Assembly (NCBI GenBank): GCA_947561395.2
Contig: OX387185.1
Location: 23,565,866-23,629,865, forward strand
From: Buxus sempervirens
Lineage: Eukaryota; Streptophyta; Magnoliopsida; Buxales; Buxaceae
Reading direction: 5' to 3'
Length of the DNA: 64,000 nucleotides
Part shown: in pieces, positions 2,995-63,581 of the stretch
Position numbering within the stretch: the stretch's first letter is position 1
Layout of the letters: each line of letters begins with the position of its first letter
Notes under the pieces: generated by a model
The model's input: the letters and a program-made list of their open reading frames with translations, nothing else
Databases searched by the model: none
What the model was told of the DNA's origin: nothing
Program-made: the position numbers and the translations under genes

Positions 2995-3130
2995 GTGTAG
3001 AGCAGCCAGAAACCCTGAGTAGGCCTGGTTGTCAATGCAGAAACCCGGGGAGTAGGCCTGCATTGGATGACGAAACCCTGAGTAGGCCGTCATTTCAGAG
3101 TATCCGAAACCCTGAGTAGGCCGGAACTGT
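2995..3130 (+). repeat. Four-unit hairpin array with constant 17-base core and variable stems
   Basis: The core GAAACCCTGAGTAGGCC occurs four times, once slightly altered. Each copy is bracketed by bases that pair with each other: CCA/TGG (3006-3028), CAATGCA/TGCATTG (3033-3065), ATGAC/GTCAT (3067-3093) and TCC/GGA (3103-3125). The brackets differ between units but stay complementary. The sister LTR at 59470-59556 has two of the same pairs, AATGC/GCATT and ATGAC/GTCAT. Confidence 0.85.
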
Positions 3131-4395
3131 GTACATGGAGGTGTGGAGTGTCTACTTGGCATGTTTAATTTATCAACTAAACGATAGTCATGACATTGAC
3201 CAATCGATGTGTTATTGTACTTAACTGAGATGTGATTTGTTGGATTTGAACTTGGGAAATTGATGTTGGTTGTTTAAACGTATTGTAGTGTTGTCGATGC
3301 ATAGTTTTAAAATGTGATTCAACTATTTCTGCATGCATGTGCTACTCGCTGAGATATTCGTATCTCACTCTGTTGTTGTTCTGTTTTTCAGATACTCGTG
3401 GTGAGGGGATTACTGGGGTAGATCCTGCTGAGGCATATAGGGAGGAAGACTACTATTACCTTCCTTAGACTTGTAGGTTATCTGTTCTGAATTTGAGAAC
3501 TTTGAATTAATTGAGATGTATTAAAGTAAATTGGGGATGAACCATATGATTCCAGTTTAGTTTAAATGTTACAATTTTGCATAAATGGAAATATGCACTC
3601 TGTCAGGTTATAGATGTATGATTATCCAGCGATCATAAATTGATTAACGATCCTTGCCTAACCTCCGTGAGACGTGTTATATCTTTAATGAACAACACGG
3701 ATCCGGGGCGTTACATAAGCCTACAATGGTCTGGACCAGTACTGGATCCTCGCGTGCCACGGCAAGAAACCAGTGGTGCTAATGGACTCCAGAAAACTGG
3801 GGGGATGGGTTTACCCTGCTTTCCCCGGCAAGCCACGGGAGCGTAGGTGCTAATACCATCCCAAAGATCAGTTCATAGTAAGAAGAAGGGTAGGCTGCTA
3901 GAGAGGTCTAAGTTTTGGTAAAGAAGTAGCAATATCCGATTCACTCATCTATCAAAGGTCGGATCATTCACGCATCCTCCCTCGTGCGTATCACCCCACG
4001 CAGTTCCATCACGCCAATGCGGGAATTTTAAACAAACCATCCACGGTGTGGTGGTGTGCCCGTGTGTGCAGTTGGGCTGCGTGCTGTGTCTACATGGGTG
4101 AGTTTTGTCTGGACTTTAGGTGATAAAGGAATCCTTACTGCCTCGTATAGTAAGGTGCAGAATTGGCACGTATTACGATGTCCTGGGAGAATCCCCAGGT
4201 AAGTGGAGGGTCACAGGGGACCACTTAAATTCCACTTGCCTTAGGCAATTATCGCGTCCTTGTGGCAGGACTCCCCAGAACACGTAGTTACATGTATTCC
4301 GTGCCTTGCTAAGCGAGGTAGCAAGATTTCCTAAATATCAACTAATTCCCTCTTAAGCTGACTCGGTCTAAGTAGGGTAATACTGGGCTGACTTA

Positions 4396-4413
4396 TCCCC
4401 AGCAGAGTCGCCA
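4396..4413 (-). promoter_or_regulatory. Primer-binding site of element M
   Basis: On the minus strand this reads TGGCGACTCTGCTGGGGA and starts 3 bases inside the 5' LTR end. The same site follows the G1 LTR (13167-13184), and a one-base variant follows the G2 LTR (42536-42553). Ogre/Tat elements are known to prime from a tRNA-Arg; the match to a particular tRNA was not tested. Confidence 0.8.
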
Positions 4414-5468
4414 GGCTGTGCGCGCGTGGGAAACGTGGCACGGGGTAACTTCGGAGTCGCCACCGCCTGATGGGGTGCAGGCGGACACCTGGGTGCCTAA
4501 TCTTGTCTATTAGGGCTTTTTGGTCTGCGGCTTGAGATTCTAAGTCTGTTCTCGGTTGCGGTCTGGGGAAGTCCGTAGACACCCTAGTCCGCCCCGTCGG
4601 ATGACGGGTCCCGTGGGTTCCCTGATTTGAGTCAGTTCTCTTTGGTTCTCACCCGGTTCCTAATCCAGCATGTAATTTAGTTAAGTCTCGGTGGGACCAC
4701 CTGAGTGGTGTGGGTCCCTTTAGTTGATTTTATCTTTGCTTAACTTAATTGTCTGAGTCTGATTGGGTGGGCCCCGTTGAAAGGCCCACGGTGCCCTTGG
4801 TGGGCTTGACTAAGCCCACGTGTGCCCCTGGTGGGCCTCTGCCTAAGCCTAGGAGGTCCTTTGGGCTTAGGTTAATGAGTTGATTTTACTTAATTTGTTT
4901 AAGTTTGAACTTTTGGGTGATTTTCATGCAAAGGGTTAGACTGCATTGGTTGGCAGGCCCTAGGGTGGGCCCCCATGATGGTTTCCAAGGGTGCTTTGGA
5001 ACTATTTTTATTTAGTTTTGCCAAGAATGGGCTACTCACTGGGCTTGGGCCCCGTGATCCAGTTTTGGGCCTGAAAGCCCAAATTCCATGAAGTTAGGGC
5101 TTGAGCCCTTCACTTGGTTTGGTTAGTGGGCTTTGGCGGGCCCGATAGGCCCTTGCCCTAGGTCTCGGCCAAACCACGCAGTTTAAACATCATTCCACAC
5201 ATCAAGGCTCGGGTGTGCCGCATTGGGTTTGGCCTGCCCGGTTCAAATGGTTCATTTCACTTAACTTATTCATTTGCATGCCTTTGAGCTTATCGGGCTT
5301 GGTGGGCCCTGTTGGAAGGCCCACTAGGGTACCAAGTTGGACCGGTGGTCCAGGTCCCAAGTTGGGTTTCCGGGTGACCCGGAAACCCTGTTGGTTCAGT
5401 GGTTTTGGTTCAAATCGCTCCCAAAAGTCGGCAAGACATCGAAACATACAAACAAACACATTTCTGGG

Positions 5469-7138: not shown

Positions 7139-7149
7139 ACTTTCTTAAT

Positions 7150-7396
7150 GTATCCAGACTTGGAGTCCGGATACACTATATACCATGTGTATCCGGCCTC
7201 CAAGGCTGGATACACTAAGCTGCCTTTGTATCCGGTCTTGGAGTCCGGATACAAAACATAATAATTGGCAAAAATTAATTCCGCCGCGAATTTGTCGGGG
7301 AATCGGCGCGAATCTCGCCGAGCAAATCTTCGTATCCGGCCTTGAAGTCCGGATATACATAAGGGTATGTGTATCCGGTATATTTGACCGGATACA
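7150..7396 (-). repeat. Pre-TATA cluster of five GTATCC..GGATAC hairpins
   Basis: Five dyads of about 25 bp lie at 7150-7174, 7187-7215, 7226-7254, 7332-7357 and 7371-7396. The outer arms GTATCC/GGATAC are constant; the inner arms vary (AGACT/AGTCC, GGCCT/AGGCT, GGT/ACC) and mostly still pair. The same cluster with other inner arms is found in the P and R LTRs. Confidence 0.85.
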
Positions 7397-8831: not shown

Positions 8832-9038
8832 CACAGCTCGAATCCACGAACTGTAACACAACTTGAATCCACAAGCTGCAATTCACGATCAATCCAGATC
8901 CACAGCTTGAATCCACGAACTGTAACACAACTTGAATCCACAAGCTGCAATTCATGATCAATCCAGATCCACAGCTCGAATCCATGAACAGTAACACAAC
9001 TTGAATCCACAAGCTGCAATTCACGATCAATCCAGATC
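8832..9038 (-). repeat. 69-bp tandem repeat, three copies, 3' LTR of S
   Basis: Copies start at 8832, 8901 and 8970. Each holds two small dyads around the constant loop AATCCA: CTTG-AATCCA-CAAG, and CTCG or CTTG-AATCCA-CGAA. The stems change and remain mostly paired. The 5' LTR has four copies (32197-32472). Confidence 0.85.
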
Positions 9039-9429
9039 GTAACAATCACCTCAGAGCCCACTGAGATGATCCAATGCAATAGGAATCCACCTATGCATCC
9101 ATCAAGCTCGATCACCAATCCAGGAGATCATACGATCATGTGAAGTTCCGAAATGAAGAAGAATCCTCAAACTTCAATTCCAGGAGATCTCTCTCAGATC
9201 TCCCCCTCACTCGATCACCGACTCTCTAAAGATGAATTGATTGAATCTCGAACACCTCAAGATTCAAATCGAATTGATCAAAAGAAAAAAGTCCTTTCTA
9301 AAAAAATACAGCTCGTCTATTTAAAGAAGAAAAACTCAGATAGCATCGAGCGCTGGTGGCGTCGCCTTGCGATCGGGGTAGACGGCTGGAAGCGAACTCA
9401 AGTCCCGCTCAAATCCAAATTGACCCAGT

Positions 9430-9952: not shown

Positions 9953-10737
9953 TCATGTAAGCCTTACTTCAGAATTGAAAGCCTCCTGGGAGGCTTGCAA
10001 GGAATTCAACTTGTCCATGATTGCCATAGCATCAGAACTAGACAAGGAGGATTGAGAAGAAGAAGGCTCCGAAGAAGCCAACCGAAAGGGATTCGCTCTT
10101 TTGCTTCTGGTAAGGGTGGAGGCATCAATGGGAGGTTTGGGGTGAAGGATCAATTCAACAGGATCAAGTATGATCCCTTGGTGAATGCACAAGTAAGTGA
10201 TGAAAATCCCAAAGAGAAGAGCAGAAGTCTTGGATTTCAAATTCCGAGACTGAATGATCTGATTGAAGATGATGGAAGGGAGACAGACGCTGTCTCTATT
10301 CCATAGAGCATGAAGGAGTCTTGCTCGAGAGTGAGAAATCTCAGAATGATGATCTGAGGGAACAAGAGAAGCACAAATGAACAGATTCAAGATCCTGAGA
10401 AGATCTTGGAGAGAGCCATGAGGAAGATAGTTTGGCTTATTTTTTATGGAGGTGGGAGCACCCTGAACAATAAGAGAAGAAATTATTGACTCAATGGGAG
10501 GATCAGAGTGAGAGGCTAGAATGTCAAAGGAAGGAGATTCAACAATGGGCAGCTCCAGAAGAGAGGAGATAAGTTCTTTCGAGAAGTCGAAAGAGATGCC
10601 CCGGACATAGGCTTTGACGAAGCCTTGATTTGCAAGATGAAGATGGTGGAGGTTCGAATAGAACTCTCGAACCAGGTCTTGATAAGCAAAACCATTTATC
10701 AGAGCAAATTTCTTCCATCCATTGTCCGAAAACAAGG
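9953..10737 (-). pseudogene. Third ORF of S, C-terminal part
   Basis: Reading minus from the G1 insertion, the product contains GWKKFALINGFAYQDLVREF and a VRGISFDF stretch. This is like the plant family annotated as putative plant transposon protein, which is often found as the extra or env-like ORF of Sireviruses. The last 60 or so residues are serine-rich with a short helical tail. Its function is unknown; an envelope role has been proposed for the group but I see no signal peptide or clear membrane segment here. It lies between RNase H and the 3' LTR, the expected place. The N-terminal part lies on the other side of G1 (25423-25684). Confidence 0.75.
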
Positions 10738-11282
10738 TGTAGACACCTGATTTTTGCACCCCCAAAATAAAGAAAAATAAAAAGTCAAACCTTGAGGGGG
10801 TCAAAAATTGACTTTTTGATTCAAGTGAATTTGGCCATCAAACTTCATCTCATTGAAAAGAGCATTTCGACACGATTCTAACGCAACCGAATTTGCTGGA
10901 ATCGGAGTCCAGACGGAAAAGATATGAGCTGGTCAAACTTTTGGGGAGCAAAAAGTTGACTTTTTGCTCGACCCCAATTCAACTGCCAAACTTGATCCCA
11001 ATGGATAGGTGGTTCCGAGCTGATTCCAACGACACTAAGTTTGTTGAAATCGGACACCAGATAAAGAAGTTATGAGCAGTTGAAGTTTCAGAAAAACTGC
11101 CCATGTGGCAAAAAGGCAGCAAAAATGGACTAAACCAATAAAATAAATAAGATAAAAGTGTTTAATAATATTTTAATAAAGGAATCTCGTTTATATAATA
11201 AAATAATCATAAAATCGGATAAAAATCTTTAAATAAACCAAATTGAATAAAGGTTTGAAATCCAAACATTTTAAAAACGTGC

Positions 11283-11495
11283 GGGACCGTATTTGAAGTA
11301 CGGGCGAGGCATGCCCGTACTTCAACTACGGGCAAGCTTCTAGAAGGGGACGCGTGGCGGGACACGCGTCCCGTACGGAAGAATCTGCGATAATTGCAAA
11401 TATTCGTTTTTCGCCCGTAATTGAATTATGGGCAAGGCACGCCCGCACTTGAAGTACGGGCAAGGCATGCCCGTACTTCAAATACGGGCACGAGA
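11283..11495 (+). repeat. Pre-TATA CCCGTA..TACGGG hairpin cluster of G1
   Basis: Five dyads of the form CCCGTANTT-AANTACGGG occur, with inner pairs changing between A:T and C:G (for example CCCGTAATT/AATTACGGG in the 3' LTR copy, and CCCGTACTT/AAGTACGGG). A separate perfect dyad GGGACGCGT/ACGCGTCCC lies at 11347-11372. The 3' LTR has one additional 28-bp unit (about 23680-23710). Confidence 0.85.
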
Positions 11496-11503
11496 ATTTT
11501 GCC

Positions 11504-11511
11504 TATAAATA
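11504..11511 (+). promoter_or_regulatory. TATA box of the G1 5' LTR
   Basis: TATAAATA follows the hairpin cluster by a few bases. The same box is at 23758-23765 in the 3' LTR. Confidence 0.75.
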
Positions 11512-12344
11512 GAGAGGCCACCCCCCTCATTTGAGCAAGCCTTCTCCATAGGCCCTTGCCCTCTCCCTCTTGTCCTAACCACGGCCAACCTTGCCCAAGC
11601 TCTGCCAAAATCCCACTAGCCCAAAAATATCCCCAAAATACCCCTAGATTACACCTTCCTACCTCACCTTCAATCCTTTTCAAACCAAAGAGAGAAAGAC
11701 CTTTTCGAAACCATTTTGGGAAATCAAACAGGACGCGGAAGCGCTGCCGAAATCCTCAAAGACCTCATCACCTCAACCAAAAGAAGGTAATAGCAAAGCA
11801 AAGGTTCTGGTAATGTTTTCTTCAACATATACATTAAATGAGTTTCTTTCTAAAATCTTTATTATTTAATTTGTTGTTTACTTCATTATTTGTTTGCTCT
11901 CACCTCCTTTGCCTTGTTTATTTGTGGATTTGTTCTCCCCATAATATGGGAGAGAATTTACTTGAAGGGAAGAAAGAGCAATTCTAAATCAAGATGGACA
12001 CTTGGACAAACTTTAAACCAATCAAATTAATTCGTTTTGTTTACCTAATATAGAAGGGTATGTCCTTCTTGAAACACTGTTGTACCCCATGTCCCCCTCT
12101 CCTTCCCTTCTTAACAACGGCCATAAATGATTAAAAGGAAGTCTTGTCCATTCAAATAATGCAAAAGGAAGAGAAAAGGGAGTAATGGAACCAAATGAAG
12201 CAAAATGGAGCAAAATGCATTATTTTGAAGAAGCTGGAATCTCTGCGGACGTAGCCGGAGCATCCAAGGAACACGCCGGAGTGATCCTAACCAGGATCGG
12301 AACACAAAAGTGCAAAACAGGTTGCGCCCGTAAACTCAGGCCGG

Positions 12345-12432
12345 TCCGGGCGGGACCGTATTTTCTTCACGGGCGAGGAAGACCGTGATTCATCCACGGG
12401 CAAGGTGGACCGTATAGAAAATACGGTCCAAT
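12345..12432 (+). repeat. Downstream hairpin cluster of the G1 LTR
   Basis: It contains the perfect dyad GGACCGTAT/ATACGGTCC (about 12410-12432) and imperfect ACCGT..ACGGGC pairs. These are the same vocabulary as the pre-TATA cluster of this LTR. Confidence 0.8.
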
Positions 12433-13166
12433 ATGAATGTAACTTAAAAAATATAGTTTTCTGGCCCGGTTGGACTTAACCCAACCCAAAACGGCCTGAA
12501 CCGGCCTTTTAGACAATTTGGGCTATTGTGAGCCCAATAAAAGACTGTGGGCCTAGATGGGCCCACCAAGATTACCATAGGCCCACTTGTGGGGCCCACT
12601 TTTGACTGGCCCATACCAGGCCTGTTTTCAATAAACATGCCCAAGGCCACTTGACTCTTGGCTAATGGGCCCGTTCCAAGCCCACTAAGCCCAAATAAGT
12701 TGTAAATAAATAAAATAACCAAATGGGTTACCCAATAACCCAACTGGGCCCAAGGCCCAACCATGGCAACCCACGGGTCTTCTAACGGGACCCGGGTCCG
12801 ACCCACTTCATCTAGATAGATAAAAAGATAAAATCAAATAAAAGGGACCTACACCTTCAGAGGGCCCCGCCAGACCTAACAAGGTAGCATGCTGGTCTAG
12901 GAAGGGTGAAATTGACTCAGAAACCAGGAAGACCCGAGGGACCCGTCAAACCGACGGGGCGGACCGGGGTGTCTTCAGGACTTCCCCGGATCGTAACCGA
13001 GGACTTAGCTAGAACTCTGAAAAGCCGCAGACCAGACTTAGACCCGATTAGGGCAAAACCGTGTCTGCCTGCACTCTCAGGCAGTGGCGACTCTGAATGT
13101 CCCGAGGCACGCACCAAAGGCGCGCCCGGTGTGCGATCTAGGATCCGGTTTTAGGTGCGCACAGCT

Positions 13167-13184
13167 TGGCGACTCTGCTGGGGA
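13167..13184 (+). promoter_or_regulatory. Primer-binding site of G1
   Basis: TGGCGACTCTGCTGGGGA starts 3 bases after the 5' LTR. It is identical to that of M. Confidence 0.85.
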
Positions 13185-15322
13185 ATCCCTCAACCCAGTC
13201 GGACCCTGGTTATCAAATGAGTCAACTTAGGAGGATATAGGCTAATTTAGAAAGTACTTTTTGTCCAACCTTAGTAAGGTATGGAACTCATGTAATTACA
13301 TGATATTGGGGGATCCTGTCAAACGGACATGATAATCGCCTAAGGTAAGTGGTTTTTAACAGGGACCAATGTGACCCGCCCACTTACCTGGGGATTCACC
13401 CAAAACTTGTATTACATGCTGTTCTGCACTTTTACTATAAATGTGACATAAAGGAACCCTTTGTTGGCCCTTATCCGAGAATCACCCGAATAGACACAGC
13501 ACTTGACTCCACTGCACAATACAAGCACCTCACTACACCGTGAATGAATTTTTTAACTGCGTGGGGTGACATGCACGAGGGAGTCTGCATGGATGATCCG
13601 AACTGAATGCTGTCTGCACCATGTGAATGCTCTTCTTAACCAAAACCTAGATCTCTCTAGCAGCCACCCTTCTTCAATCGAGAAACTTACTTTTGGGATG
13701 GTATTAGCCCTACGCTCCCGTGGCTTGCCGGGGAAAGCAGGGTAAACCCATCTCCCCAGGTTTCTAGATTCTTCAAGCGCCATTGGTTTCTTGCCATGGT
13801 ACGCGAGGGGTCTAGTACTTGGCTCAGACCCTTGAAGGCAGGTGCCTCGGGCTGGGTATCCTTCCCCACCTATTGATTCTGAAAAACCTTGATACTCTGA
13901 ATGTGAATGGATTTGAATCTGAATGTGAACGCGAATGCTGGAACAAAATAAGGGAAAAATCAATTTAAAACCCAAGAGTCCATCAGGGGTAGCAACCCCC
14001 GCCGTTTTTTTTTTTTTTTGCATCAACCTGAGTAAAACCTAGACCATGGGCTGCCTTAGCCCTAATTTAGGAAACCAACCCAATTTGATCAGGGGTCTAA
14101 CCCCAGATCCATGCATTTGAGTCTTGTAAACCGTGGGCCTCGACCCATTGAGTCCGCTAGAAGCACTCTAAGTCTTAGTTGGCCTTTTGAGCAGATAAAA
14201 GCCGGCCAGATCAGACAATCAGACAGAAACAGGCCAAAACAGGGGCAGAAAAACCCTAGATTTAGGATTTCAGCCCACCTACCAAGAAGCAAACTTGTAC
14301 CCTCCTTTTGGGTTCCCAACAACCCTAAAGGTGATTTTCTTTACAGAATTATTTTTGTAAATTTCGCCCTCGATGGCAAGTTGTAAACATTCTTGTTATG
14401 GTCTGACACCCAAAAGCAGATGAAAGATAAAAGGCTGATCAGGACTTAGGAGTGCCTCCTTACACAAGTGTATCTAGGAGTCGTGCCTTAACAGGCACCA
14501 ACCCTTTTAGGACCATGCACACACCTGTTGTTTTTTTTAGCATTTAACTTTCACTTTACTTGTGTATATATTTGTTCTTGCATTAAACATGTACACTTCG
14601 AGATCATTTACACCAACCTGTTTAGTCGAACTGTTTTAAAAAAATGCACAAAATATTTTCCGGGCATGCATTGAGCCAGCTTCTGAGGTGCTCATCAAAA
14701 TTGCTTTTCAAAGCACTCAACAAAGTGGCCTTCGGGTCTACATTGAATCATATCCACAACAAACATTAACATTGTCTTTTGCTATGCACAGTAAAACCGT
14801 CATTCGTGGTTATATTGAGCTAGCTGTATAGACATAAATCAAATCGCCCATCTTGCGGCGTAAATTCTCCATGCCATTGTTCAGGACACGTTTTCAAAGA
14901 GATTTTCAGTCGGATATGATTTCCTGAGGTTTGCACTCATAAAGCACGTGTTGCATGGTTTTGAAAACCATCAAACACGATATGATCTCCAGAGTCTCAA
15001 TCTCTGAAAGATCGAACCGCAAGTTTTTTTTAACATCGCAATTTTCAGGAAAAACTCTTGATTGGATATGGCACTGTCACACATTGTTCACAGTGATGCT
15101 TTGTTGAAGTTGTGATTTTCATGCATGAACCGCCTCGTATTTGTTTTCGCCCATCATGGCACTAGAGCAGCACTCACAGTGTAAATGATCTCGTCACACA
15201 CCACACCTTGTTCATAAGTTGAAAAGAAACTGATTGAGATCTTTAATAAACAGGTACGACTCAGGTACTTCACATTAAAAGCACTGCCCAGAACGCTGCA
15301 TTTGCATTAAAAAAGGACTGCA
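13185..15322 (+). other. 5' leader of G1
   Basis: The first 1.2 kb matches the leader of G2 and M (purine and pyrimidine runs, CAGCAACCCCCGC near 13990). The rest, to the gag start, is unlike G2, which has ORF1 in this place. No ORF1-type protein is seen here, and no other gene. Confidence 0.75.
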
Positions 15323-16640
15323 ATGAATTCTTCTGAGGCTCCAACTTCGTCATCCTCACAACCAAGAACTGAAGAACAGCAAGTCATGATGGATCTAAGT
15401 CCACAAGTAGCCATGACACATGTCACGGGGGTTCAAGTACCAGAAGTCCAACAGGGACAACCACCCCAGCCGAACCTCATGTCAGTTGATCTGCCACCAC
15501 GAGACACCCAATTCCCACAACAAGAACCATGCATGCCTGTCCAGCTGGGGCAGGAAGAGCAAGACCGGAACAGGATACGGAAGGCCCAACTTGAAGAAAT
15601 GTTGGCTGCAATAAAGGAAGACAGTAAGGCCCAAATAGCCGCAATAAGAGAAGAGCTCTTGAAACAACTCCAGCCCAACCCAGTACGTGAGGAAACCACA
15701 CTGGAGAGCTTGTGTCTTTTTCCAGACATCCATCTGCCAGCAAAGTTCCGATGTCCTGACCTGCATAAATTCGATGGCACTGGCTGTCCTTTGATACACC
15801 TGCGATCCTATGTTGGCAACATGTGCCAATACGTGAAGGATGAAAAGATCATGGTTCAGTTCTTCCAGAGATTGCTAACTGGGGCAGCATATTCTTGGTT
15901 CCTAAGTCTGGACAAGCAAGAGGTCAAGACATGGAACGACCTTGCTGTTGTATTCATCCAACAGTACCATTTGAACAGTCCGACGGTTCAAACCCGGGCA
16001 GAATTACATAGACTGTCAAAGGGAAATAGCGAGTCTGTAAGAGACTACGCTAAAAGATGGATAAAACTAGCAAATATGGTTCAACCCCCTCTCCTTGAAC
16101 AAGAACAAACTTCTCTGTTCATTTCATCACTGGGGCAGCCATACTTTACAATGCTGCTGGGTCAGTGTGTTGCAAGTTTTGCCGATCTAATCAAAGTGGC
16201 AGAAAGAATTGAAGATGCGATTAAGACTGGAAGAATAGGAGCTTCTATGACAGAATCCTCCCAAGAAGACATAAGATATGAGGGAGCGATCAACCATGTC
16301 CGATCTGCTAAGCGCAAGAGAGGAAATGATCACCCCTGTGCAAATGTCACAACGGCTCGATTGAAGGAGCCCTTGACTAAGGAAGAAAGAAAGAACCGTG
16401 TGTTCACACAGCTTCCATATTCCCTGGCTGAGTTGTTGCCTACCTTGCTGCAAGAAGGACACTTGAAGTAGGTTCCCCCAAATCCAAGGGCACCAGCAAG
16501 TAGAGGGTATGACCCATCCAAGACATGTGGTTACCATAAGGGAGCACCGGGGCATGATACTGACGAATGTTGGAGCCTCCGTCATGCTGTCCAAGATCTC
16601 CTTGAAGTTGGGGAACTCAAAATTGATCCTCCGCCAAATT
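15323..16640 (+). pseudogene. gag region of G1
   Basis: The start at 15323 follows a leader, and the translated part is closely similar to the first third of the G2 gag. A coiled-coil segment lies around residues 85-115. The Retrotrans_gag core occupies about residues 138-300, with landmarks FRCPDLHKFDGTGCP, AAYSWFLSLDK, WNDLAVVFIQQY, ESVRDYAKRW and SLFISSLGQPY. A knuckle-type module (CGYHKGAPGHDTDECWSLRH) lies around 16525-16590. Gag proteins assemble the virus-like particle and package element RNA. The region is broken (at least one break). Confidence 0.85.
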
Positions 16641-16752
16641 GAGAAAAAATTTGAATTGAAAAAAAAAAAAAAAAAAAAGGAAAAGATTGAAAAAAAAAGA
16701 AAAAGATCATCTTTATGCAGCTTAGCATTTCATGGATTCTGGTTTCTGATGC

Positions 16753-19385: not shown

Positions 19386-19389
19386 TGCA

Positions 19390-20400: not shown

Positions 20401-20496
20401 GTCAGAAATTGGTGAGGAAATGTCCCTACATAATTTGTGATATCAAAGCTGTTGATACATGAATTTGAAAAAAAAGAAAAATTGAAAAAAAAAAAA

Positions 20497-20530: not shown

Positions 20531-20635
20531 GAAAAATGAAAGAAAAGAAAGAAAAAAGAAGAAGAAGGGAAAAAGATTGAGAGAGAAAAGAAATGGACAA
20601 AGACAAAAGAAACGAAATGTCTCCTAAAGACAAGA

Positions 20636-46275: not shown

Positions 46276-46399
46276 GACGCCGCCAGTGAATGAACTGGAG
46301 ATTGGTTGAGGTACGCCTGGGTGCTGCTTTTCAGCTCACCCCCTGCGGAGACCCTACATCGGTCCAACCCTGTGATTCTGAGCTCAAACAAAACCCCCT

Positions 46400-47495: not shown

Positions 47496-47582
47496 TCATG
47501 AAACAAAAAAAAATAAATGAATACATTCAATCAGATAAAATTGTGTAATCAATTTGTGTAAAATTGCACTAATGCCTGCAAA

Positions 47583-51824: not shown

Positions 51825-54059
51825 TTGGGAAGTGAAGAGAGGCCATCCTTGACTCTCCTTTAAACTGTAAATCCTTCCAAATACCTTAAATTCTCCCCTA
51901 GTTAGACAATTTTGAGCCTTAAAATTCTTTCAACCCGTTGCAAGTGTTCTACACACCAAATGGGGCATTCCTGGCAAAGCAAAAAGAAACCGGGCATTCT
52001 TGCCCAGAAAAACCTCAAAAAGAAGAGAAAATGCAACAAGGAAAAAAGGAAAGAAAAAAAAGAAGAAACAGAGAAAATGGGGAGATGTTCGCCCCGCCAA
52101 AAATATAGAGATACAAATAAGCCAGGATGTAAGTCCCACCAACAATAAAAGTAGCACACTTTGCAAACACAAATAATTAAGTTTTTTTGAGCCATCTATC
52201 CTTTCTTTCATAACCAAGATCAAGCCTACATTTCGTCCTATCTCTAAGACCTCTCAGATCCCAAAAGGAATGATCAGGGCAAACAGTTAGGTCTGCATTC
52301 ATCAGCAATGACGGAATTCAGAGTTTCCTAGAAAGGCTGGACACAGCGAAAACCCGAAAAAAGGGCGTTGCGTGGTTAGTCAAAAAAAAAAAAAAGAAGA
52401 AGAAGAAAAAAAGAGCTGGTCACATCTGGTTTGAGCAGAGCAAGATACAGAGGAGAGCAGTGATAGTGGCAGGTAGTAAAATGAGAAAGTTGAACAGATT
52501 TGAGAGGTCCAGACTGGCAGGTTGCGCCCGAGTCAAAGACTTCACAGTGGCCTGTGATGACAATACTTTTGAAAATACCAAGCACTCCAAGTCCCGTCTG
52601 ACCTCGGGAAATTTCTTTGATATTGCAAACACAGGCACACACTGACACACCTGTTTTCTCTATAATTGTTCTGCTTAACTGTTTTGAGCTCCACATTGGG
52701 CTACTAACCTGAGTTGATAATTTCTTAACCTTGGCAAAGGCCGCTTCTGGTTGCGGTGGGCAAAAGGCTCAGAGCAAGAAGAGAATAAAAGAAGTGTTTT
52801 GCATTCCCCAGCTATTCCATGGCTAACATGTTGTCTTTTCCCACCTTCACAGGTACAGCAAAAGAGGGATAACGAACGTCTTCTCCAAAATCCCCAGCTG
52901 AGTTCCTTCAATAAACGGAGAATTACAACCTCCAAAAATCCCCAGTGGAAGGCCTTCAGCAAACAAGGGACGACACCCTTACATCCCCAGTAGAGTCCTC
53001 TCAAGCAATAAGAGAATGATACCGGATGACGTAGACTTATCAAGCCTCGCCCAGTCTGAAGAGGCCGGCTTTGCGAAGAAGAGCGGAAAGAAGACAAGCA
53101 AGCTCGCATCAATCCCTGGTGGAGCCTCTCGCACTCAACAAGAGCTTGAACGAACATGAAGAATTCGCACCCAAGCAGAGGGAGAAGGCCTTATGAAGGA
53201 AAATTGCAGCGTGAGGAATCCCCACTTATCCCCAGCGGAGCATCCTTCCCCGGGGAACTCCCACGCTTGTCACTAACAAGGCTCGACCCGAAAGAAGAGG
53301 CGATAAGGAAAAATAGATTCCTGCCCAATCCCCAGCAACAGTCACTCCAAGCTGGGGAGCCTCTACAAGAGGGAAAGCCAATCAGAAAGCACTGCAGAAG
53401 AAGGAATGACAAGATATGAAGAAGAATGAGCATAAATGAAGATATCATCGGGCAAGATGGCCCCTTTTGTAATTTTTGATTTCACACTTTTGTAAATAGA
53501 GTAGAGCAGGTGTGTGGGCTCCCTTGAGGCACTGGACAGCGCTGGAAGCACCTCCTCACCGATAGCAGCTCCTCCTCCACTCTTCCTTCCTCCTTTCTCC
53601 ATTCGGTCCACATCCTAACCCGACCCTGGGCCTCCAAATCCTAATAGTAAACAACAAAAAAAAGGGGAAGAGAGAGAAGAAGAAAATGCAAGCAAGCTTC
53701 AAGTAAAACACAAAATGGATCAGAAGTCTGAAGTCACCTAAAAGCTTTAATGGAACAAACAAGAAGAAAAGAATATTGTCAAGTGTCTGGCATCAACGCC
53801 GAAACAGGTTGGCGAGCTCAAGTCCAATCTAATCTCTTTCAAACTTAAACTAAAATTCTGAAGAGTTGCCCAACAAAAACCCGAAAAGCAAAGGGTAAGG
53901 AAACTCTGAAGCCAGGAAGTGACGCCACATGATTTGGCCGCTTCCTTGTCAAAATGAAAACTTCAAAGGACTAAGCTCGTCGACCATGTCGACAGAAATG
54001 CCAAGCGCAAAAACGAGATTCTTTTTCTCTTTGCCGTTCATCCGCAAGGTGACTCCGGC
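51825..54059 (+). other. 3' non-coding region of G2
   Basis: It contains the GAGGCCATCCTTGACTCTCC block (homologous to P at 8250, G1 at 18140 and R at 63550), purine runs, and a series of CCCCAG(T/C)GGAG words between 52800 and 53350. Then come the CATCAACGCCGAAACAGG block (about 53785) and the GTCGACCATGTCGACAG motif (about 53980). Small frames here show no domain. Confidence 0.78.
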
Positions 54060-54072
54060 AAAGAGGGGCAGC
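54060..54072 (+). promoter_or_regulatory. Polypurine tract of G2 with overlapping hairpin arm
   Basis: AAAGAGGGGCAGC precedes the 3' LTR. The arm CGGCAAAGAG (54056-54065) pairs perfectly with CTCTTTGCCG at 54027-54036. Confidence 0.85.
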
Positions 54073-57000
54073 TGTAAGCACCTCATTTTTGCGCTCCCAG
54101 AAAAAAACCAAAAATGCAAACCCTGGACAGAAAGTCAAACCCTAAGGGGTGAAAAGTTGACTTTTTGATCAAGTGAAAATTGGCCACCTCGCTTTATGCC
54201 ATTGGATAGAGAATCTCGACACGGTTCCAACGCAACTGAGTTTGCAGGAATCGGGGTTCGGACGAAGGTTCGGCGGGCGGTCAAACTTAAGGAAAAGCCA
54301 AGAGTTGACTTTTCCTCGAATTCCGTGCCAAGTACCTTGCTTTATATCATTGGATAGAGAATCTCGACACGATCCCAACGCAACTGAGTTTGCAGGAATC
54401 GGGGTCCGGATGAAGGTTCTGCGGGCGGTCAAACTTGAGCAGAGCCAAAAGTTGACTTTCTGCTAAAATCCGATCCGGAGGCCTACCCCTAGGTCATGGG
54501 ATGGAGGGCTCCGATACGATTCTAATGAAACTAAGTTTGCCCAGATCGGAGTCCGGATGAAGGAAATATGAGCTGACGAAATTCCCGGGCAACAAAACCG
54601 GCAATCTGCACACGTGGCAAAAAGCTGCACACGTGGCGAGTTGCGCAGGAAAATATCTCGGGGATTAAATCCGTAAATATCCAAACATACGAAATATCCC
54701 AGGGACTAAATCCGTGAAAATCCGAGAATATCGGATTAAATCAAAAATTGCCAGGGACTAAATCCGAATTTTTTAGATTTTTACGTCCGGTGAGCGGCGG
54801 CATTAAATGATTTTCATCATTATGCCGCTCGCGCGGACGTGGCGAGCGGCATGCGCTCACCTGGAGCTGGGCGCCAAGGTGGGCGCATACCCTTTTTTTT
54901 CGCTTATATAAGCCGCGCGGCATTTCGCGCAGAGGGGTTGGAAGACTTCTCGAAAAAAAACTAAGTGTTAGGATTTTTGGAGGGTTCGAAGGGTTTTTGT
55001 CTGGTTTTCTTCTTCCTTCACCCGAAGCCCTCCTCTCTTCATCCCTGCTTGCCCCCAAAAAAAAAACCCAAGAGGCTCACCCTTCTTTGGTTCTTCTCCA
55101 TTTCCACCCAAGCAAGGGGAAGCTTGCTACTGTTGGTGCGGTGAAGTGGAGGATCCTGCCGCTATCTGGTTTCGAGGAGGCTCCCACATTCGGCTCCAGA
55201 ACTCAAGAACCACCAGGTGAGGATCCCTGTTACTTTGGTTTACACATATATGAATATGCGATGTTCTTTTGTAAGCCGGTCTTATTCAGTGGTATGAAAC
55301 CACTGCCATGAAAACTTGCCATGTTTTTCCTTTTCACTTCCATCTGATGAAGACCACCAAGTAAGGAAGAGGAAGATGCATGTGTTGCTCGCGCTGAAAA
55401 GGGAGCATGTTCCCAAGTTCCCTTCATCCCTTGTATCCCTGTAAACCCCCCTCTTCATTCCCTTCTTCGGATGTTAGCATGCATGTTTGAAGGGCCAGTC
55501 TGTGGATGGGATTGCATGTTGTTTTCTTTGTTTTTATTGTGCTGGACTTGCTAACATGCCCCCCAACCCCCTGCCTATGCTGTTTGCTCCTTGTTGCGCC
55601 CCTGTAAGCATGCTCCCATCATCCCATTAACTGTCTGTAGTCCTAGGACTGTGTTGTTTTGTGATAATGGGGTTTGGTTTCCTTTTTAGTGATATGGAGT
55701 TGTGTATTTAATCAATTAGATTAATTCCAATGCATGTGTAAGTATCTCCTGGGGTGGCCGAAGCCCTGGGAGGGCTTACAGAGCCTAAAAAATGAGTTAC
55801 AGACCTTAAAAGCAGCTCAGAAATGGAGTTTGAAAGAAAAACCGAGAACATCGAGTATCCGCGAAGCTCGCGCGCACCTTCGCGCGAGGCTCGCGCTCAC
55901 CTCTTTTTTTTTGTGTTTTCGCTGTTTTTGGTCCGCCCGGCCCGCGCCTACCTCGCGCCTAGTGCCCGAGGTCGATGCATACCCCTAAAAACATGCCAAA
56001 TTGGACATCCCCTTGGACCCAGCACAATGAGCCAGTTTTTTTTCTGACAGAGTGTCCATCTTGCGTTTTGTTTCTGTGATTATTGCTGGATGTAAATGCC
56101 ATTTCCGAAACGAACCGGATAAACCAATAGGGTTTCCGGGTCACCCGGAAACCCGACATGGGACTTGGACTCCCGACCCGGAAACCCGACATGGGACTTG
56201 GACTCCCGGTCCAACTTGACTTCCAGTGGGCCTTCCAACGGGGCCCACCAAGCCCAATAAACACCAAAGCATGCCATTAAAATAACTTAAGTAAAATGAA
56301 CAATTTGAACCGGGCGGGCCAAACCCAATGCGGCCCACCCGAGCCTTGTTGTGTGAAATTGATGCATGAATTGCGTGGTTTGGCCGAGACCAAGGGCAAG
56401 GGCCTACCGGGCCCGCCAAAGCCCACTAACCGAACCAAGGAAGGGTGCAAACCCTAATTTCTGGTAACTTGGGCTTACAAGCCCAGATTTGGACTACGGG
56501 CCCCAAGCCCAGTGTCCAGCTCACTTTGGCAGATTAAAAAGATAAATCTAATAAAAATACTTGGCCACCATGTGGGCCCACCTTAGGGGCCCACAAACCA
56601 GTCCGGCCCACTTGTGCATGAAAAACACTTAATCTTCAAAGCTTAACTTAAAGTAAAATCTGTTGAACTAACCAAAGCCCAAAGGACCTCTCAGGCTAGA
56701 CTGAGGTCCACAAGGGTACACGGGCTTCACTAAGCCCACCAAGGATACCGTGGGCCTTCCAACAGGGCCCACCCAACCAGACCCAGATCACCTAATTAAA
56801 CAAGATGAAAGCAATTAAAGGGACCCACACCACTCAGGTGGTCCCGCCAGACTTAACCAAACTGCATATCGGATTAGGAAGCGGGTGAGACCAATGGAAG
56901 CTGACTCAAACTAGGGAACCCACGGGACCCGTCATCCGACGGGGTGGACCGGGGTGTCTACGGACTTCCCCGGACCACAACCGAGAACAGACTTAGAATC

Positions 57001-57117
57001 TCAAGCCGCAGACCAAAAGCCCTAATAGACAGGATTAGGCACCCAGGTGTCCGCCTGCACCCCATCAGGCGGTGGCGACTCTGAATCACCCCGTGCCGCG
57101 TTTCCCACGCGCGCACA
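54073..57117 (+). repeat. 3' LTR of G2
   Basis: It is 3045 bp, the partner of 39270-42534. It is shorter in the GC-rich array and lacks the segment at about 41291-41454. It also carries a short duplication of a CCCGACATGGGACTTGGACT word (about 56150-56210). Confidence 0.94.
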
Positions 57118-57330: not shown

Positions 57331-60011
57331 TGTAAAATCCCGAATTTTAATAACATTAAAAATTAGATTTTATGTTTTAAAAATTTATTTAATTAGTGGA
57401 GAACTTTAGAAACAGAGAAAGGGAGATTAATTAGAGTTAAATTTCAAAAATTTAAATAGGATGAATTATTAAAATGGGAAATTTTGGTTATTGGACTTCC
57501 ATGGATTTGGATTTTGGCGATTCGGTGTTGGAACGAGTGAAGGTAATCTTGGAATTTCCCAAGCCTAAATTATGAAGAATTAAGTTAAATAGGCAACAAA
57601 TATTGGTTTAAATAAATTGATAATAGTGTGTTTGAAATTTATTATAAATTGGAAGGTGCTAATGTAGGGTCTTGGTGGAGTGGCGAAATTAAATTAGAGA
57701 GTAGGTGGTTGCCTAGGTAGGATGTTGCGGTGGATGAGCACGCAACAGATCATGAGGTGGGGTGTTTTTTTAGAGCATCTTTTCATTAGATCAAACAGCT
57801 AAGGGTTGTGCACGTATGGATATGTGTAGGCAAGCAGGCAGAGAATCATTAAGGGAACTATAAATACTTAAGGTATTTTGGTCGTAGGTTTTTCTTTTCG
57901 CATAATTTGAGTTCGAAGAAAACTGTGGCTGGAGTTCTAGGGTTTTGGAGAGGAGCTGACGTGAGGTTTCCTGTTGATTGAAGTGTTCAGGATCAGAGGT
58001 TCAGTCGATTTGTCTGTGTGATCAGATCTGGAACTTTTGGGATCGGAGGTGAGCAGCAGAGATTTTGGAGTGAGAATCGTTGCCGTTGGTGCTCAGTTGA
58101 AGCCTTGGAGTTGCTGAACTTGGGGGTATTCGAATCAAGTGAGTAGCATCGTTTTGATTTTATGGTGGGTTTTGATCTCCGAGATTAGTCGGAAGCATGT
58201 TTTCTGAATAAGTTTTTTACTGAGCGTGAGTTATTTGATGGGTTTAGAGTCGTGATTATAATGTTGTTTGGATTAAATCCGAACCATGTTTAACAGTGTT
58301 TTGGTAATGGTAGAAGCATAGATGAGTAGTTACAGAGGTAAAAAATACGGCTAGTCATGGAGTTCTGAGATTAACAGAGAGTCGCGAGTCAGAGGTCGTG
58401 TTCGCCGACTTGGCGCCTACCTAGTGCCAAGTGGTAGAGTCAGTGCAAGGTATAGTATGTTAGTCTCGCCGAGTTCACGCTTGTTCCGCGCCAAGTAAAT
58501 CGGGTTAGCACGAGGTGCTGTTTTAGCATGCGCCTACCTCGTGCCAACCGTCCCAAGGTCAGCGCACCTACCCAAATTGTTGAAAACAGCCCCTTAATTA
58601 CATGAAAGTAAATGTCCTGTGTATTTATTGCTCCATTTACTTAAGTCTTTAAATGTAAATAAGGTTTTACCCCCCATTTGGAACCAATAAAAATACTTCC
58701 AAGGTCCAATTCCTAGCCAATAAAAAGTCAACTTTCCAGTTCATGCCTAAATTTCCAGTTTTCCCGGTTTTTATCAAAAAGCCAGGTTTGGGTTTGATAC
58801 CCAGATGAGTGATTTAGAAGCCCATAAAATTCTAGGAGATGTTTTTACCCTTCAATAGGCTACAACCAAAATTTGAGCCCGAAACGCCTTGTAGATTTGT
58901 CTAGAAAAATTATATACCCAAACGTCAACGTTTTTAACCAGACTTAGAATATTTTGAAGTCCAAAACTTTTTGTCTCGGAATTTATTGCTTTTTGGTATG
59001 GTGACCTTATAGGGGATCCTAAGACTATTCCACTCATCCAAAATATATTTTGAGGATTTTATGACATTCGTTTTGATTGATTTGGTTTATGAAAGCGAAA
59101 TTGAGAATCTAGGAGCTGTTTGCTGATTTATGTTTAATCGAAGTTTGGATGCTGTAACTGTTTCTGTATAATGTGTTTACTTCTGAAAAGTCAGTTTTGA
59201 AACCATATTTGTTTTGCTAAAATGCATCTACACTATTATGCTAGTTCATCTTCGAATGCACGGTACACTTCAGGAATGATTCACTTGAACATGTTGATCT
59301 ATATGTCCGTTTTTCATGATGGAAAACACATTGAGTTGATTTGCTATTTTTATATTTACTACTGGTTTAGCTTGTCCTGGATCCAGAGTCTAAGCTTAGT
59401 AATGTGATGTATATGTTTTATTAGTGTAATGGCATGGCCATGGAGTGTTGCCACGACCGGTGTAGAGCAGTCAGAAACCCTGAGTAGGCCTGGTTGTCAA
59501 TGCCGATACCCGGAGTAGGCCAGCATTGGATGACGAAACCCTGAGTAGGTTGTCATTTCAGTTAATCATTATTTTATCGCTATCTTCGGGATTGGAGACA
59601 GATTTTATTGCTTGATTTACCTGATGGTTTTCTGCACTGATATAAATTGGATTATTGAAGTTTATTCGGAATATGCGTGTTATCATCATCGTATATGGTT
59701 TATAACCGTGGCATGTTTTAGAACTGAACTAAATGTATTTGTGCATGCATGTGCTACTCACTGGGATATTCGTATCTCATTCCATATTGTTTTGTTTTGT
59801 TTTCAGCTGCTCCTGGAGAGGACGATACTTGCGGGTAGTTACTTGGTCATGTGAGTTTATTTCCGTTTGGGATTATTTTAGCACACTCTGTTATATAGTT
59901 ATTGTTATATTCATGTTTTTCCTTCACTCTGATATTGTGGTTCTGTGTTATATGCTAACCTTTGGAGAAGTGTTACGGTTTAACAATGTAACTCGGATAT
60001 GGGGCGTTACA
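57331..60011 (+). mobile_element. Second Tekay/Del-like solo LTR, TSD CTGCA
   Basis: It begins TGTAAAATCC, ends GGGGCGTTACA, and has CTGCA at 57326-57330 and 60012-60016, 2681 bp. It resembles 1230-3715 in its ends, in the GCTTGTCCTGGATCCAGA word (59373), in the TTGCCACGACCGGTGTAGAG word and in a GCATGTGCTACTC word near the end. The middle differs, so it is a related but distinct subfamily. A GC-rich TTGGCGCCTACCTAGTGCCAA-like block lies at 58385-58565 and the hairpin array at 59470-59556. No coding part is present. Confidence 0.88.
59470..59556 (+). repeat. Constant-core hairpin array, second Tekay-like LTR
   Basis: Three units related to the array at 2995-3130. Brackets AATGC/GCATT and ATGAC/GTCAT surround CCCTGAGTAGG-like cores. 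Confidence 0.82.
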
Positions 60012-60670: not shown

Positions 60671-60681
60671 GACATGTTTTT

Positions 60682-60914
60682 GTATTCGGCCTTGATGGCC
60701 GGATACACAAGGTGGTGTTTGTATCTGGCCATGGAGGCTGGATACACTAGGTGTCTTTTGTATCCGACATAAAATGTCGGATACAGACATAATGTTTTGA
60801 AACATTAAATTCCGTTAGAAAATCTGACAAGATTTCGATGGAGATCTTTTGTATCCGATATTTAATGTCGGATACAAAGAAAAATATGTGTACCCGACAT
60901 ATTATGTTGGATAC
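60682..60914 (-). repeat. Pre-TATA hairpin cluster of R, five units
   Basis: Units lie at 60682-60706, 60721-60745, 60760-60784, 60851-60875 and 60890-60914. Outer arms are GTATCC/GGATAC; inner arms are of the GGCC/GGCC type in two units and GACAT/ATGTC type in three. All have loops of about 3 bases. Confidence 0.88.
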
Positions 60915-61496
60915 AAAAAGGCGAATTTTCGATATTTATAGATTGCCCCTCGGATTTGACCGATTTGACAACCGAGATAATCGTAGATTGCCCCTGGCTA
61001 TTCGCAGATCAATCCCCGACATATTTTTACATCAATTGAGTATTCGCGGATTAGTCCCCGAGATATTTATCTGCTCTCTCGCCATGTGTGTTGCTCTTTT
61101 GCCACGTGTGCAGTTTTCGACGTTGCTGCCCTAGAACTTTAACTGCTCATATCTTCTTCATTCGGACTCCGATTTTGGCAAACTCTGTTGCGTTAGAACC
61201 GTATTGGAGTCCTCTATTTATTGGGACAGGGCTAAGTAGCTGATTTGGGGTTTAGCAGAAAGTCAATTTCTGCTCCCCCTCAAGTTTGACCGGCTTGTAA
61301 ATCCTTCATCTGGGCTCCGATTCCAGCAAACTCAGTTGCGTTGAAACCGTGTCAGGATTCTCTATCTACTGAGATAAATTAAGGTGGTCAATTATCACTT
61401 GATCAAAAGGTCAACTTTTGCCCCCTTAGGATTTGACTTTCCAGCTAGGGTTTGCATTTCCAGCACTTCCAGGAGTGCAAAATTGAGGTGCTTACT

Positions 61497-63581
61497 GCTG
61501 CCCCTCTTTGCCGGAGTCACCTTGCAGATGAACGGCAAAGAGAAAAAAGAACCTTGTTTTTCCACCTGGCATTTCTGTCGACATAGTGGACGAGCTCAGT
61601 CCTTTGAAGTTTTCATTAAGAGGGGGGAAGCGTCCAGATGATGTGGTGCCACTTCCCAGCTTCAGAGTTTCCTAACCCTTTGCTTTTTGGGTTTTTGTAT
61701 GGCAACTCTTCAGCATTTAATTTATATTTAAAAGAGATTAGATCGGACTTGAGCTCGCTAAGCTGTTTCAGTGTTGATGCCAGGCACTTGACAACATTCT
61801 TTTCTTCTTGTTTGTTCCATTAAAGCTTTTAGATGATTTTAGACTTCTGATTTTTTTTTTTTAAGATTGATGGCTAGGAGTTTGTTTAGAAGGTGGGGAG
61901 AGTGAGGAAATGAGGAAGGAAGAGAGGAGGAGGTGCTTCCAGAGTTGTCCGGTGCCTCAAGGGAGTTCACACACCTGCCGTATTCTATTTACAAAAGTGT
62001 GAAATCAAAAATTACAAAAGGGGCCATTTTGCCCGATGAGATCTTCATTTCTGCTCATTCTTCTTCATGTCTCGCCACTTCTTTTTTCTGCAGAGCGCCT
62101 TCTGGTTGGCTTTCCTCTTCTGATGAGGTAAAGGCCTCCTAGCTTGGAGTGACTACCACTGGGGATCAGCCGAGAACCTCCACCTCATTGCTTTTTCTCA
62201 GTCAAGCCTTGTTTTTGGCATGTGCAAGGGTTCCATTGGGAAGGATGCTCTGCTAGGGATGGGTGGCACCTCTTATGCCGTCATTTCTCACTTCTGCTTG
62301 GGTGCGAGCTCATCCTGCTTGTCTGAGCTCTCGTTGAACATGAGGAAATTCCACCAAGGATTGGTGTAAGCTTGTTTTGTCTTCTTTCTGCTCTCTTTCA
62401 CAAAGCTGACCTCTTCAGACTGGGCGAGGCTTGGGAAGATTATCAAATATCGCTTTCTTATGGCTAGGAAGGACTCCACTGGGGATTTAGAGGGCATCGC
62501 ACTTCGTTTGTTGAAGGAACCCCACTGGGGATTTGGGAGAGGATGTCTGTTATCTCGCCTTTGCTGTACTTGTGAAGGTGGGAAAGGAACAGAATGTTAG
62601 TCGTGGACTAGCTGGGGAATGCAAAACATTATTTTTATTCTCTTCTTGTTTTGGGCCTTTTGCCCACGACAGCTAGAAGCAGCTTCTGCCAAGGTTGAGA
62701 GATCATCAAGTTTGGTTAGTAGCACAAATGTGGAGCTCAAAAATAGTTAAGCAGAACAATTATAGAGAAAACAGGTGTGTCAGTGTGTGCCTGTGTTTGC
62801 AATATCAAAAGTAATTTCCAAGGTCAGACGGGACTTGGAGTGCTTGGTATTTTCAGTAGCATTATCATCACAGGCCACTGTGAAGTGTTCTTGCTTGGGC
62901 ACAACCTATCGGTCTGGAACCCTCAGATCTGTTCATTTTTCTCAGCTTACTGTTTGCCACTGTCACTGCTCTTTCTGTACCTTGTTCTGCTTAATCCAGA
63001 TGTGACCAGTTTTTTTTGTGACTGACCACACAACGCCCTTTTTTCGGGTTTTCGCTATGTCCAGCTTTTTTGGGAAATTCTGAATTCTGTCATCGCTGAT
63101 GAATGCAGACTTAACTGTTTGCCCTGATCATTCCTTTTGGGATCCGAGAGGTCTTAGGGATAGGACGAAACGTAGGCTTGGTCTTGGTTACGAAAGAAAG
63201 GATAAATGTCTCAAAAAAGCTTAGTTATCTAGGTTCGCAAAGTGTGCTACTTTTATTTTTGGTGTGACTTACATCCTGGCTTATTTTTATCTCTATTTTT
63301 TGTTGGGTAAACATTTCCCCATTTTCTCTGTTTCTTTATTTTTCTTTCTTTTTCTATTGCATTTTCTTTTCTTTTTGAGGTTTTTCTGGGCAATAATGCC
63401 CTGTTTCTTTTTTTGCTTTGCCAGGAATGCCCTATTTGATGTGTAGAATACTTGCAATAGGTTGAAAGAATTTTAAGGCTTAACATTATCTAACTAGGGG
63501 AGAATTTAAGGTGCTTGAAAGGATTCATGGTCTAAAGGAGAGTCAAGGATGGCCTTTCTTCATTTCCCAATCAGAATGATC
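61497..63581 (-). other. 3' non-coding region of R
   Basis: It is the reverse complement of the G2 3' region (51825-54072). Landmarks are the polypurine tract and hairpin at 61504-61542, a GCATCAACACTGAAACAG-like block near 61775, CCACTGGGGAT words between 62150 and 62540, and the AAGGATGGCCTTTC block near 63550. No gene is seen. The open frames are shadows or low complexity. Confidence 0.78.

What the first reader, a model, noticed from the sequence alone, without database searches (positions are those of the whole stretch)
2995..61542. Compensatory-stem hairpin arrays recur in unrelated LTR retrotransposon families
Seen directly: at least five different short-hairpin arrays in this window keep one part constant while the stem changes on both arms together. 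They are in the Tekay-like LTRs (2995-3130, 59470-59556), the Ogre/Tat LTR U3 regions (7150-7396, 33938-34143, 60682-60914), the Sirevirus LTR (8832-9038), G1 array A (19390-21170) and array B (21310-21912, 46400-47495). Random drift would break pairing. Kept pairing implies either selection on a folded RNA/DNA form or a copying process that always rewrites both arms, such as hairpin template switching. Palindromic repeats are known in Sirevirus LTRs; a shared constant-part/variable-stem design across chromovirus, Tat/Ogre and copia elements is, to my knowledge, not described.
Basis: partly seen in the sequence, partly recalled or inferred. Interest (0 to 1): 0.86.

Follow-up and report, generated by a model that had tools for sequence, protein, structure and literature searches.

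The report
Variable-stem hairpin arrays in plant retrotransposons
Several different plant jumping genes in this stretch carry rows of small hairpins whose paired arms differ from unit to unit yet still match each other; some sit just before the promoter and look like known control palindromes, others lie in sequence that is probably copied into RNA and may work as folded RNA.

Summary
In five kinds of array (Tekay-like, copia, A, B, Tat/Ogre U3) the two hairpin arms change together more than chance gives. Shuffles, slid registers and a tree-matched null (0-2 of 1000 simulations) agree for A, B and U3; random-flank draws agree for the Tekay-like and copia arrays. Single-pair covariation is nearly absent with window copies alone: 1 of 9 stem pairs in A, 0 of 7 in B, none outside the stems.

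The arrays are not one design. The constant part is the loop (Tekay-like, copia, A), the flanks (B) or the outer stem (U3). U3 palindromes end about 10 bases upstream of a TATA box, show no sense-strand G.U preference, and resemble published Sirevirus promoter palindromes. The other arrays lie in sequence inferred to be transcribed. There imperfect pairs are mostly G.U rather than A.C in sense, clearest in copia and in B of G2, mixed in A. Differences shared by units mostly keep pairing, private ones mostly break it (p 0.03; 0.09 without copia). This favours selection on RNA hairpins over hairpin template switching for copia and B-G2.

Function is inferred: presenting constant unpaired motifs to Gag or a host protein. 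No copies outside the window could be fetched.

The parts
1230..3715 (+). Tekay-like solo LTR 1, TG..CA, target-site duplication TAAGC (1225-1229 and 3716-3720); strand inferred
3003..3131 (+). four hairpins, constant 17-19 nt loop GAAACCCTGAGTAGGCC, four different stems
57331..60011 (+). Tekay-like solo LTR 2, target-site duplication CTGCA; TATAAATA at 57859 on +
59465..59561 (+). three hairpins corresponding to units 1-3 of LTR 1
7149..7396 (-). Tat/Ogre U3 palindromes (5), constant outer stem TGTATCC/GGATACA, variable inner stem; TATAAAAG on - at about 7131-7139
33937..34147 (+). Tat/Ogre U3 palindromes (4; the last, 34121, in another register); TATAAAAAAG begins at 34156
60681..60915 (-). 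Tat/Ogre U3 palindromes (5); TATAAAAAG on - at 60662-60670
11288..11491 (+). G1 LTR palindromes GCCCGTA..TACGGGC, TATAAATA at 11504 (again in the 3' LTR, 23514-23744)
8833..9095 (-). copia 3' LTR hairpins, loop TGGATT, five stem types
32198..32530 (-). copia 5' LTR hairpins, loop TGGATT; TATA-like TTTAAATA at 32758-32751, so downstream of the inferred start
19398..21172 (+). array A: 38 units, 5-pair inner stem, usually one bulged base and a 3-5-pair outer stem, loop TATTCACA; between gag ORFs and 3' LTR of G1
21306..21910 (+). array B in G1: 13 units, constant GGTTCYCTTTCCC..AAAATAGA flanks around the hairpin
46409..47487 (+). array B in G2: 19 units (one broken, 46434), between 5' LTR/PMD ORF and the gag ORF
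10736..25417 (+). G1: Tat-like element, LTRs about 10736-13163 and 22962-25417 (98.7% alike), gag ORF 15311-16471; no pol domain in the ORFs scanned
39268..57116 (+). G2: Tat-like element, LTRs from 39268 and 54071, PMD-domain ORF 43878-45095, gag ORF 47562-51824

Best explanation
There are two kinds of array. (1) The Tat/Ogre U3 palindromes ending close upstream of a TATA box are promoter dyads: DNA elements with a fixed outer half-site and a subfamily-specific inner half-site, working like the palindromic repeat boxes of Sirevirus LTRs. (2) The copia leader, the Tekay-like array, array A and array B lie in sequence inferred to be transcribed and are maintained as RNA hairpins on the sense strand. 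The stem letters are free as long as they pair, while a constant single-stranded part (loop or flank) is what is recognised. The most likely role is a row of binding sites for the element's Gag or a host RNA-binding protein, serving packaging, dimerisation or RNA fate. Shown: arms change together. Supported in copia and B-G2, mixed or weak in the others: constraint on the sense strand. Inferred: transcription start, and the recognition and packaging role.
For: Joint change beyond a tree-matched null and beyond shuffles and slid registers. Imperfect pairs under symmetric scoring, distinct hairpins, G.U against A.C: A 12:4, copia 10:2, Tekay-like on + 10:1, B 12:1, against U3 6:12 and other Tat LTR palindromes 2:6. 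Fixed register: A+B 41:9 over all units against U3 5:10, Fisher p 0.0007; distinct units only 30:9, p 0.004; cells are not independent. Sense folds more stably than antisense in 12 of 12 distinct copia units (p 0.0005) and in 10 against 2 of 15 B-G2 units (p 0.007). In the fold of a whole array block, A hairpins form in sense (23 of 28 above 0.5) and not in antisense (5 of 28); Tekay-like 4 of 4 against 2 of 4. The two main copia stems differ at 4 pairs, all 4 pairable in sense. Pair states shared by several units keep pairing 13 of 19 times in A and B-G2, private ones 7 of 22 times in A, B-G2 and copia, p 0.03. G-C, G.U and A-U occur at one and the same pair in A and in B. U3 arrays end close upstream of TATA.
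Against: Array A: G.U and A.C arise about equally as events on its tree (8 against 7), with 12 further breaking changes, and units are not more stable in sense. Part of the copia sense advantage is base composition: shuffled units already differ by about 1.1 of 2.7 kcal/mol. B in G1 is more stable in antisense (7 of 8), and the Tekay-like units show no energy preference. Counted by stem position the G.U contrast is not significant (p 0.69; recurrent positions p 0.11). The shared/private contrast is p 0.09 if copia is left out of both sides. In whole-array folds B hairpins are not dominant (mean pair probability 0.24 sense, 0.32 antisense in G2; 0.33 and 0.47 in G1) and copia shows no sense advantage (0.80/0.78 and 0.44/0.54). 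Per-pair covariation is significant for 1 of 16 pairs. The Tekay-like sense strand is itself inferred. No RNA, small-RNA or binding data; no Rfam match.
Confidence: 0.5

Rival explanations
1. Hairpin template switching: during reverse transcription or replication one arm is rewritten from the other, so both arms change in one step without selection on the fold.
For: In U3, pairs 9-19 (GC 7, AU 6) and 11-17 (CG 6, AU 5) switch with no G.U intermediate. Tekay-like stems are wholly unrelated between units.
Against: Copying yields Watson-Crick pairs and has no reason to prefer G.U over A.C on the sense strand, as seen in B and copia. G-C, G.U and A-U all occur at single pairs in A and in B. The Tekay-like stems stay nearly the same between two LTR copies.
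Confidence: 0.2
2. All arrays, transcribed ones included, are DNA-level protein-binding dyads (enhancers, silencers), and the strand differences are noise.
For: LTR palindromes as regulatory boxes are published (PMC2829016 and PMC10760457, passages). Units of array A and the Tekay-like array show no strand energy bias.
Against: Tekay-like and copia units have a constant asymmetric loop and free stems, the reverse of a binding dyad. B and copia are biased to G.U in sense, B-G2 and copia also by energy.
Confidence: 0.2
3. Shared ancestry plus choice of examples: a few founder stems amplified in arrays, with no continuing constraint.
For: Units are amplified (A has 24 distinct of 37). Private changes mostly break stems. 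Single breaking changes outnumber double keeping ones on the tree of A (19 against 5), and per-pair tests are nearly empty.
Against: Tree-matched simulations rarely reach the observed pairing (0-2 of 1000). Four unrelated founder stems sharing one loop already need an explanation.
Confidence: 0.1

Closest known systems
Sirevirus LTR repeated motif (RM) boxes (Bousios 2010, PMC2829016, passages read; Bousios 2016 known only as described in PMC10760457)
   Same: Multi-copy palindromes in the LTR a short distance upstream of the TATA box, varied in sequence between elements; the same place and symmetry as the Tat U3 arrays here.
   Different: Here in LTRs of Tat/Ogre type, with a TCCG..CGGA core and variable inner stem. 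The transcribed arrays do not fit. A maize survey saw no obvious peak of hairpins in Ty3 elements (PMC10760457, passage).
Hypervariable tandem repeats in 3' UTRs of Tat-lineage elements (PMC7004042 and PMC11963269, passages read)
   Same: Arrays A and B of G1 lie between the gag ORFs and the 3' LTR of a Tat-like element and are tandem repeats.
   Different: The terms 'hairpin' and 'secondary structure' do not occur in the main text of those two papers. Array B also lies upstream of gag in G2.
Viral 3'-UTR hairpins with constant single-stranded motifs bound by coat protein (alfalfa mosaic virus AUGC; largely recalled, abstract start of PMC9414508 seen)
   Same: Constant unpaired motif with free stems, as in array B.
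   Different: Resemblance only; no protein binding tested and no relation implied.
Retroelement packaging and dimerisation signals (Ty1 Gag PMC8396678, BARE PMC3735527; abstract starts seen)
   Same: The copia hairpins lie in the leader, where such signals usually lie (recalled).
   Different: To my knowledge those are single elements, not arrays with a constant loop on changing stems.

Membership tests
Sirevirus-type RM boxes | palindromic, multi-copy in the LTR | tested here: met
   U3 arrays
Sirevirus-type RM boxes | short distance upstream of the TATA box | tested here: met
   Met for U3 arrays of three Tat/Ogre LTRs and the G1 LTR; not met for the copia array, which is downstream of the TATA-like box
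Sirevirus-type RM boxes | CGG-CCG core signature | tested here: inconclusive
   U3 units carry TCCGG..CCGGA or TCCGAC..GTCGGA; the order differs from the published CGG then CCG
Sirevirus-type RM boxes | host element is a Sirevirus (Ty1/copia) | tested here: not met
   U3 arrays lie in LTRs alike to those of G2, whose gag matches PF03732; clade not tested by RT
Tat 3'-UTR tandem repeats | array between coding region and 3' LTR of a Tat element | tested here: inconclusive
   Met by position in G1, not in G2, where array B precedes gag; Tat membership not tested by RT
Structured RNA under selection | significantly covarying pairs confined to the stem | tested here: inconclusive
   1 of 9 (A) and 0 of 7 (B) at E<0.05, none outside; aggregate test positive
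Structured RNA under selection | G.U tolerated and A.C not, on the transcribed strand | tested here: inconclusive
   Favoured in copia and B-G2; mixed in A, Tekay-like and B-G1
Structured RNA under selection | hairpins form in the transcript | not testable with these tools
   needs probing or small-RNA data; folding predictions are mixed

The most novel reading that the evidence does not exclude
Different plant LTR retrotransposons (copia, a Tekay-like family, Tat) have independently evolved rows of transcribed hairpins that present one constant unpaired motif on freely changing stems, a multivalent address label read by Gag or a host factor, while other stretches of LTRs carry promoter palindromes of separate origin.
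Probability: 0.3. Interest if true: 0.78.

Novelty: new variant of a known kind. Interest (0 to 1): 0.52.

Why it matters
How plant LTR retrotransposons, above all those without pol, mark their RNA for packaging is largely unknown to my knowledge. Arrays whose stems change while pairing stays would point to the recognised motif directly. The contrast between promoter palindromes (no strand preference) and transcribed hairpins (G.U preference) gives a simple test that can be run on any large set of annotated elements. It would also help tell which LTR hairpins may feed small-RNA silencing.

Tried and rejected
Outside copies: viral-contig scans for the Tekay loop and an array B pattern gave 0. 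The Tat U3 pattern gave 9 viral loci, which I took as chance palindromes without reading them. Protein searches in viral contigs with copia integrase and G2 gag found no relative. The genome-contig scan gave 5 exact 17-base matches in bacterial records, fewer than the roughly 30 that equal base frequencies would give in 257 billion bases; not read. Rfam at gathering scores: none. Searching short sequences as text in papers gave 32 papers, 20 listed, on unrelated subjects by title. The copia gag has 3141 protein relatives, 120 listed, most without a name; named ones include Olea, Vitis, Fraxinus, Trifolium and Camellia; the host was not identified.

Rejected: one common design (the constant part differs); RNA selection on the U3 palindromes (G.U not in excess); the view that the sense-strand signal is equally strong in all transcribed arrays. 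The sense strand of the cluster 38319-38522 was not verified, so its share of the counts is a side remark.

Full report
What is there. The window is plant DNA full of LTR retrotransposons. Two Tat-like elements, G1 (LTRs about 10736-13163 and 22962-25417) and G2 (LTRs from 39268 and 54071), carry gag ORFs; no pol domain was found in the five ORFs of theirs among the ten that I scanned, and ORFs under 150 aa were not scanned. A copia element on the minus strand has LTRs at about 8604-9831 and 31961-33264, a primer-binding site TGGTATCAAAGCC, and gag and integrase ORFs on the minus strand; G1 lies inside it. Two Tekay-like solo LTRs lie at 1230-3715 (duplication TAAGC) and 57331-60011 (duplication CTGCA).

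The Tekay-like array. Four units share the loop GAAACCCTGAGTAGGCC (one 19-nt variant) on stems with nothing in common: GCCA/TGGT, TCAATGCA/TGCATTGG, GATGAC/GTCATT, TCC/GGA. The true pairing of arms is the unique best of 24. Random places in the same LTR reach the summed score in 1 of a million draws. The second LTR keeps three of the units in order with almost the same stems, so the stems are old and not quickly rewritten. A TATAAATA on the plus strand of LTR 2 suggests that plus is sense and the array transcribed; this is inferred, and TATA-like matches also occur on the minus strand of LTR 1.

The copia array. In sense, the loop TGGATT recurs with stems ACAGTTCG/CGAGCTGT, CAGCTTG/CAAGTTG, GATC/GATC, TTACGATC/GATCGTGA and, outside the tandem array, ATAGG/CCTAT. 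In the window 24 of 63 TGGATT occurrences have at least four contiguous pairs, 21 of them in the copia LTRs, against 52 of 2196 for permuted hexamers. Swapping arms among four types, the true one ties with one other of 24 because two stems share GATC. A TATA-like box lies at LTR position 507 and the hairpins at about 743-1060, so they are in the leader. The two main stems differ at four pairs, all pairable in sense RNA (one double change, three wobble changes). All 12 distinct units fold better in sense, though composition explains part. Changes private to one unit break the stem in 4 of 5 cases.

Arrays A and B. A has 38 units: loop TATTCACA, five-pair inner stem, usually a bulged base, and an outer stem that itself alternates between CGTC/GACG, CATC/GATG and GCC/GGC. 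B has constant flanks GGTTCTCTTTCCC and AAAATAGA around stems such as AGTCGCT/AGCGACT, AGTTACC/GGTAACT, AATCATT/AATGATT and AGCC/GGCT. Standard pairs fill 88.0% and 92.0% of cells, 0 of 500 shuffles reach the covariation score, and slid registers are far lower; the number of pair types is not unusual (43 and 365 of 500). G-C, G.U and A-U occur together at single pairs, a stepwise path. Swapping arms among stem types did not reach the true score in 20000 trials for A inner stems and for B; for A outer stems 334 of 20000 did.

Correction for ancestry. I simulated units along their tree with the same substitutions placed at random among variable columns. The aggregate of doubly changed, still pairable differences per pair of units was 1.34 against 0.21 (A), 1.34 against 0.24 (B) and 1.21 against 0.17 (U3), 0 of 1000 each. 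A per-pair R-scape-like test gave 1 of 9 pairs in A (E 0.03), 0 of 7 in B, and none of 291 and 113 outside the stems; single breaking events on the tree were 19 in A and 5 in B, against 5 and 3 double keeping ones and 13 and 13 steps between Watson-Crick and G.U. So the signal is in the stems, but one window cannot carry a per-pair claim. The copia and Tekay-like arrays were not put through this test.

The U3 palindromes. Thirteen 27-mers from three Tat/Ogre LTRs share TGTATCC/GGATACA and differ inside. Each of the three groups ends about 10 bases upstream of a TATA box, and a different palindrome group in the G1 LTR does so too. Their imperfect pairs are not G.U-rich (6 G.U, 12 A.C). Sirevirus repeat boxes sit in the same place and are palindromic (PMC2829016, passages), and a later paper describes such palindromes as cis-regulatory (PMC10760457, passages). 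I therefore read these as promoter dyads.

Strand test. If a hairpin works as RNA, G.U on the transcribed strand is tolerated and A.C is not; a DNA dyad or a copied palindrome has no such preference. Counts under symmetric scoring were 44:8 in the four array kinds read as transcribed and 8:18 in LTR palindromes. These are cells from related units, so the Fisher values on fixed-register cells (0.0007 for all units; 0.004 for distinct units) overstate it; per position there is no significance (0.69). By tree events A gives 8 to 7 and B 5 to 2. By unit energy copia and B-G2 favour sense, A and Tekay-like are neutral, and B-G1 favours antisense. In whole-array folds A (its first block) and Tekay-like favour sense, copia shows no sense advantage, and B slightly favours antisense. 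The RNA reading is therefore best for copia and B-G2 and open for the rest.

Old against young changes. Non-major pair states shared by two or more units keep pairing in 13 of 19 cases (A, B-G2); private ones, copia included, in 7 of 22 (p 0.03); with copia left out of both, 13 of 19 against 6 of 17, p 0.09. This fits constraint while elements replicate and decay after insertion.

Print. Searches in the open-access library listed no paper that by title or abstract start describes constant-loop, variable-stem arrays in plant LTR elements: 20 of 89 listed; 12 of 79; 20 of 42; 3 of 3; 10 of 35; 10 of 11. Passages were read in five papers; in a sixth, PMC3305785, the searched terms did not occur. 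Subscription papers are mostly not held, and Bousios 2016 is not held.

Noticed in passing
21185-21970 and 46262-47640: The block holding array B, with both its flanks, lies 3' of gag in G1 and 5' of gag in G2, as if the hairpin block moved within the element family.
   Followed up: partly
43878-45095 (+): ORF with plant mobile domain (PF10536) and DUF7745 inside G2, upstream of gag, perhaps a captured host domain.
   Followed up: no
45839-46266: Three tandem 142-bp repeats just before array B of G2.
   Followed up: no
32826-33150 (-): Upstream of its TATA-like box the copia LTR carries spaced dyads such as GCTACCACTTCGCTGGTAGC, so one LTR may hold both promoter palindromes and leader hairpins.
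   Followed up: partly
38319-38522: Another strong palindrome cluster (GTGTAGCCGAAAT..ATTTCGGCTACAC) with a 75-bp tandem duplication.
   Followed up: partly
7639-8005, 39388-39656, 54186-54459: 148-bp direct repeats near the LTR starts of several Tat-like LTRs.
   Followed up: no
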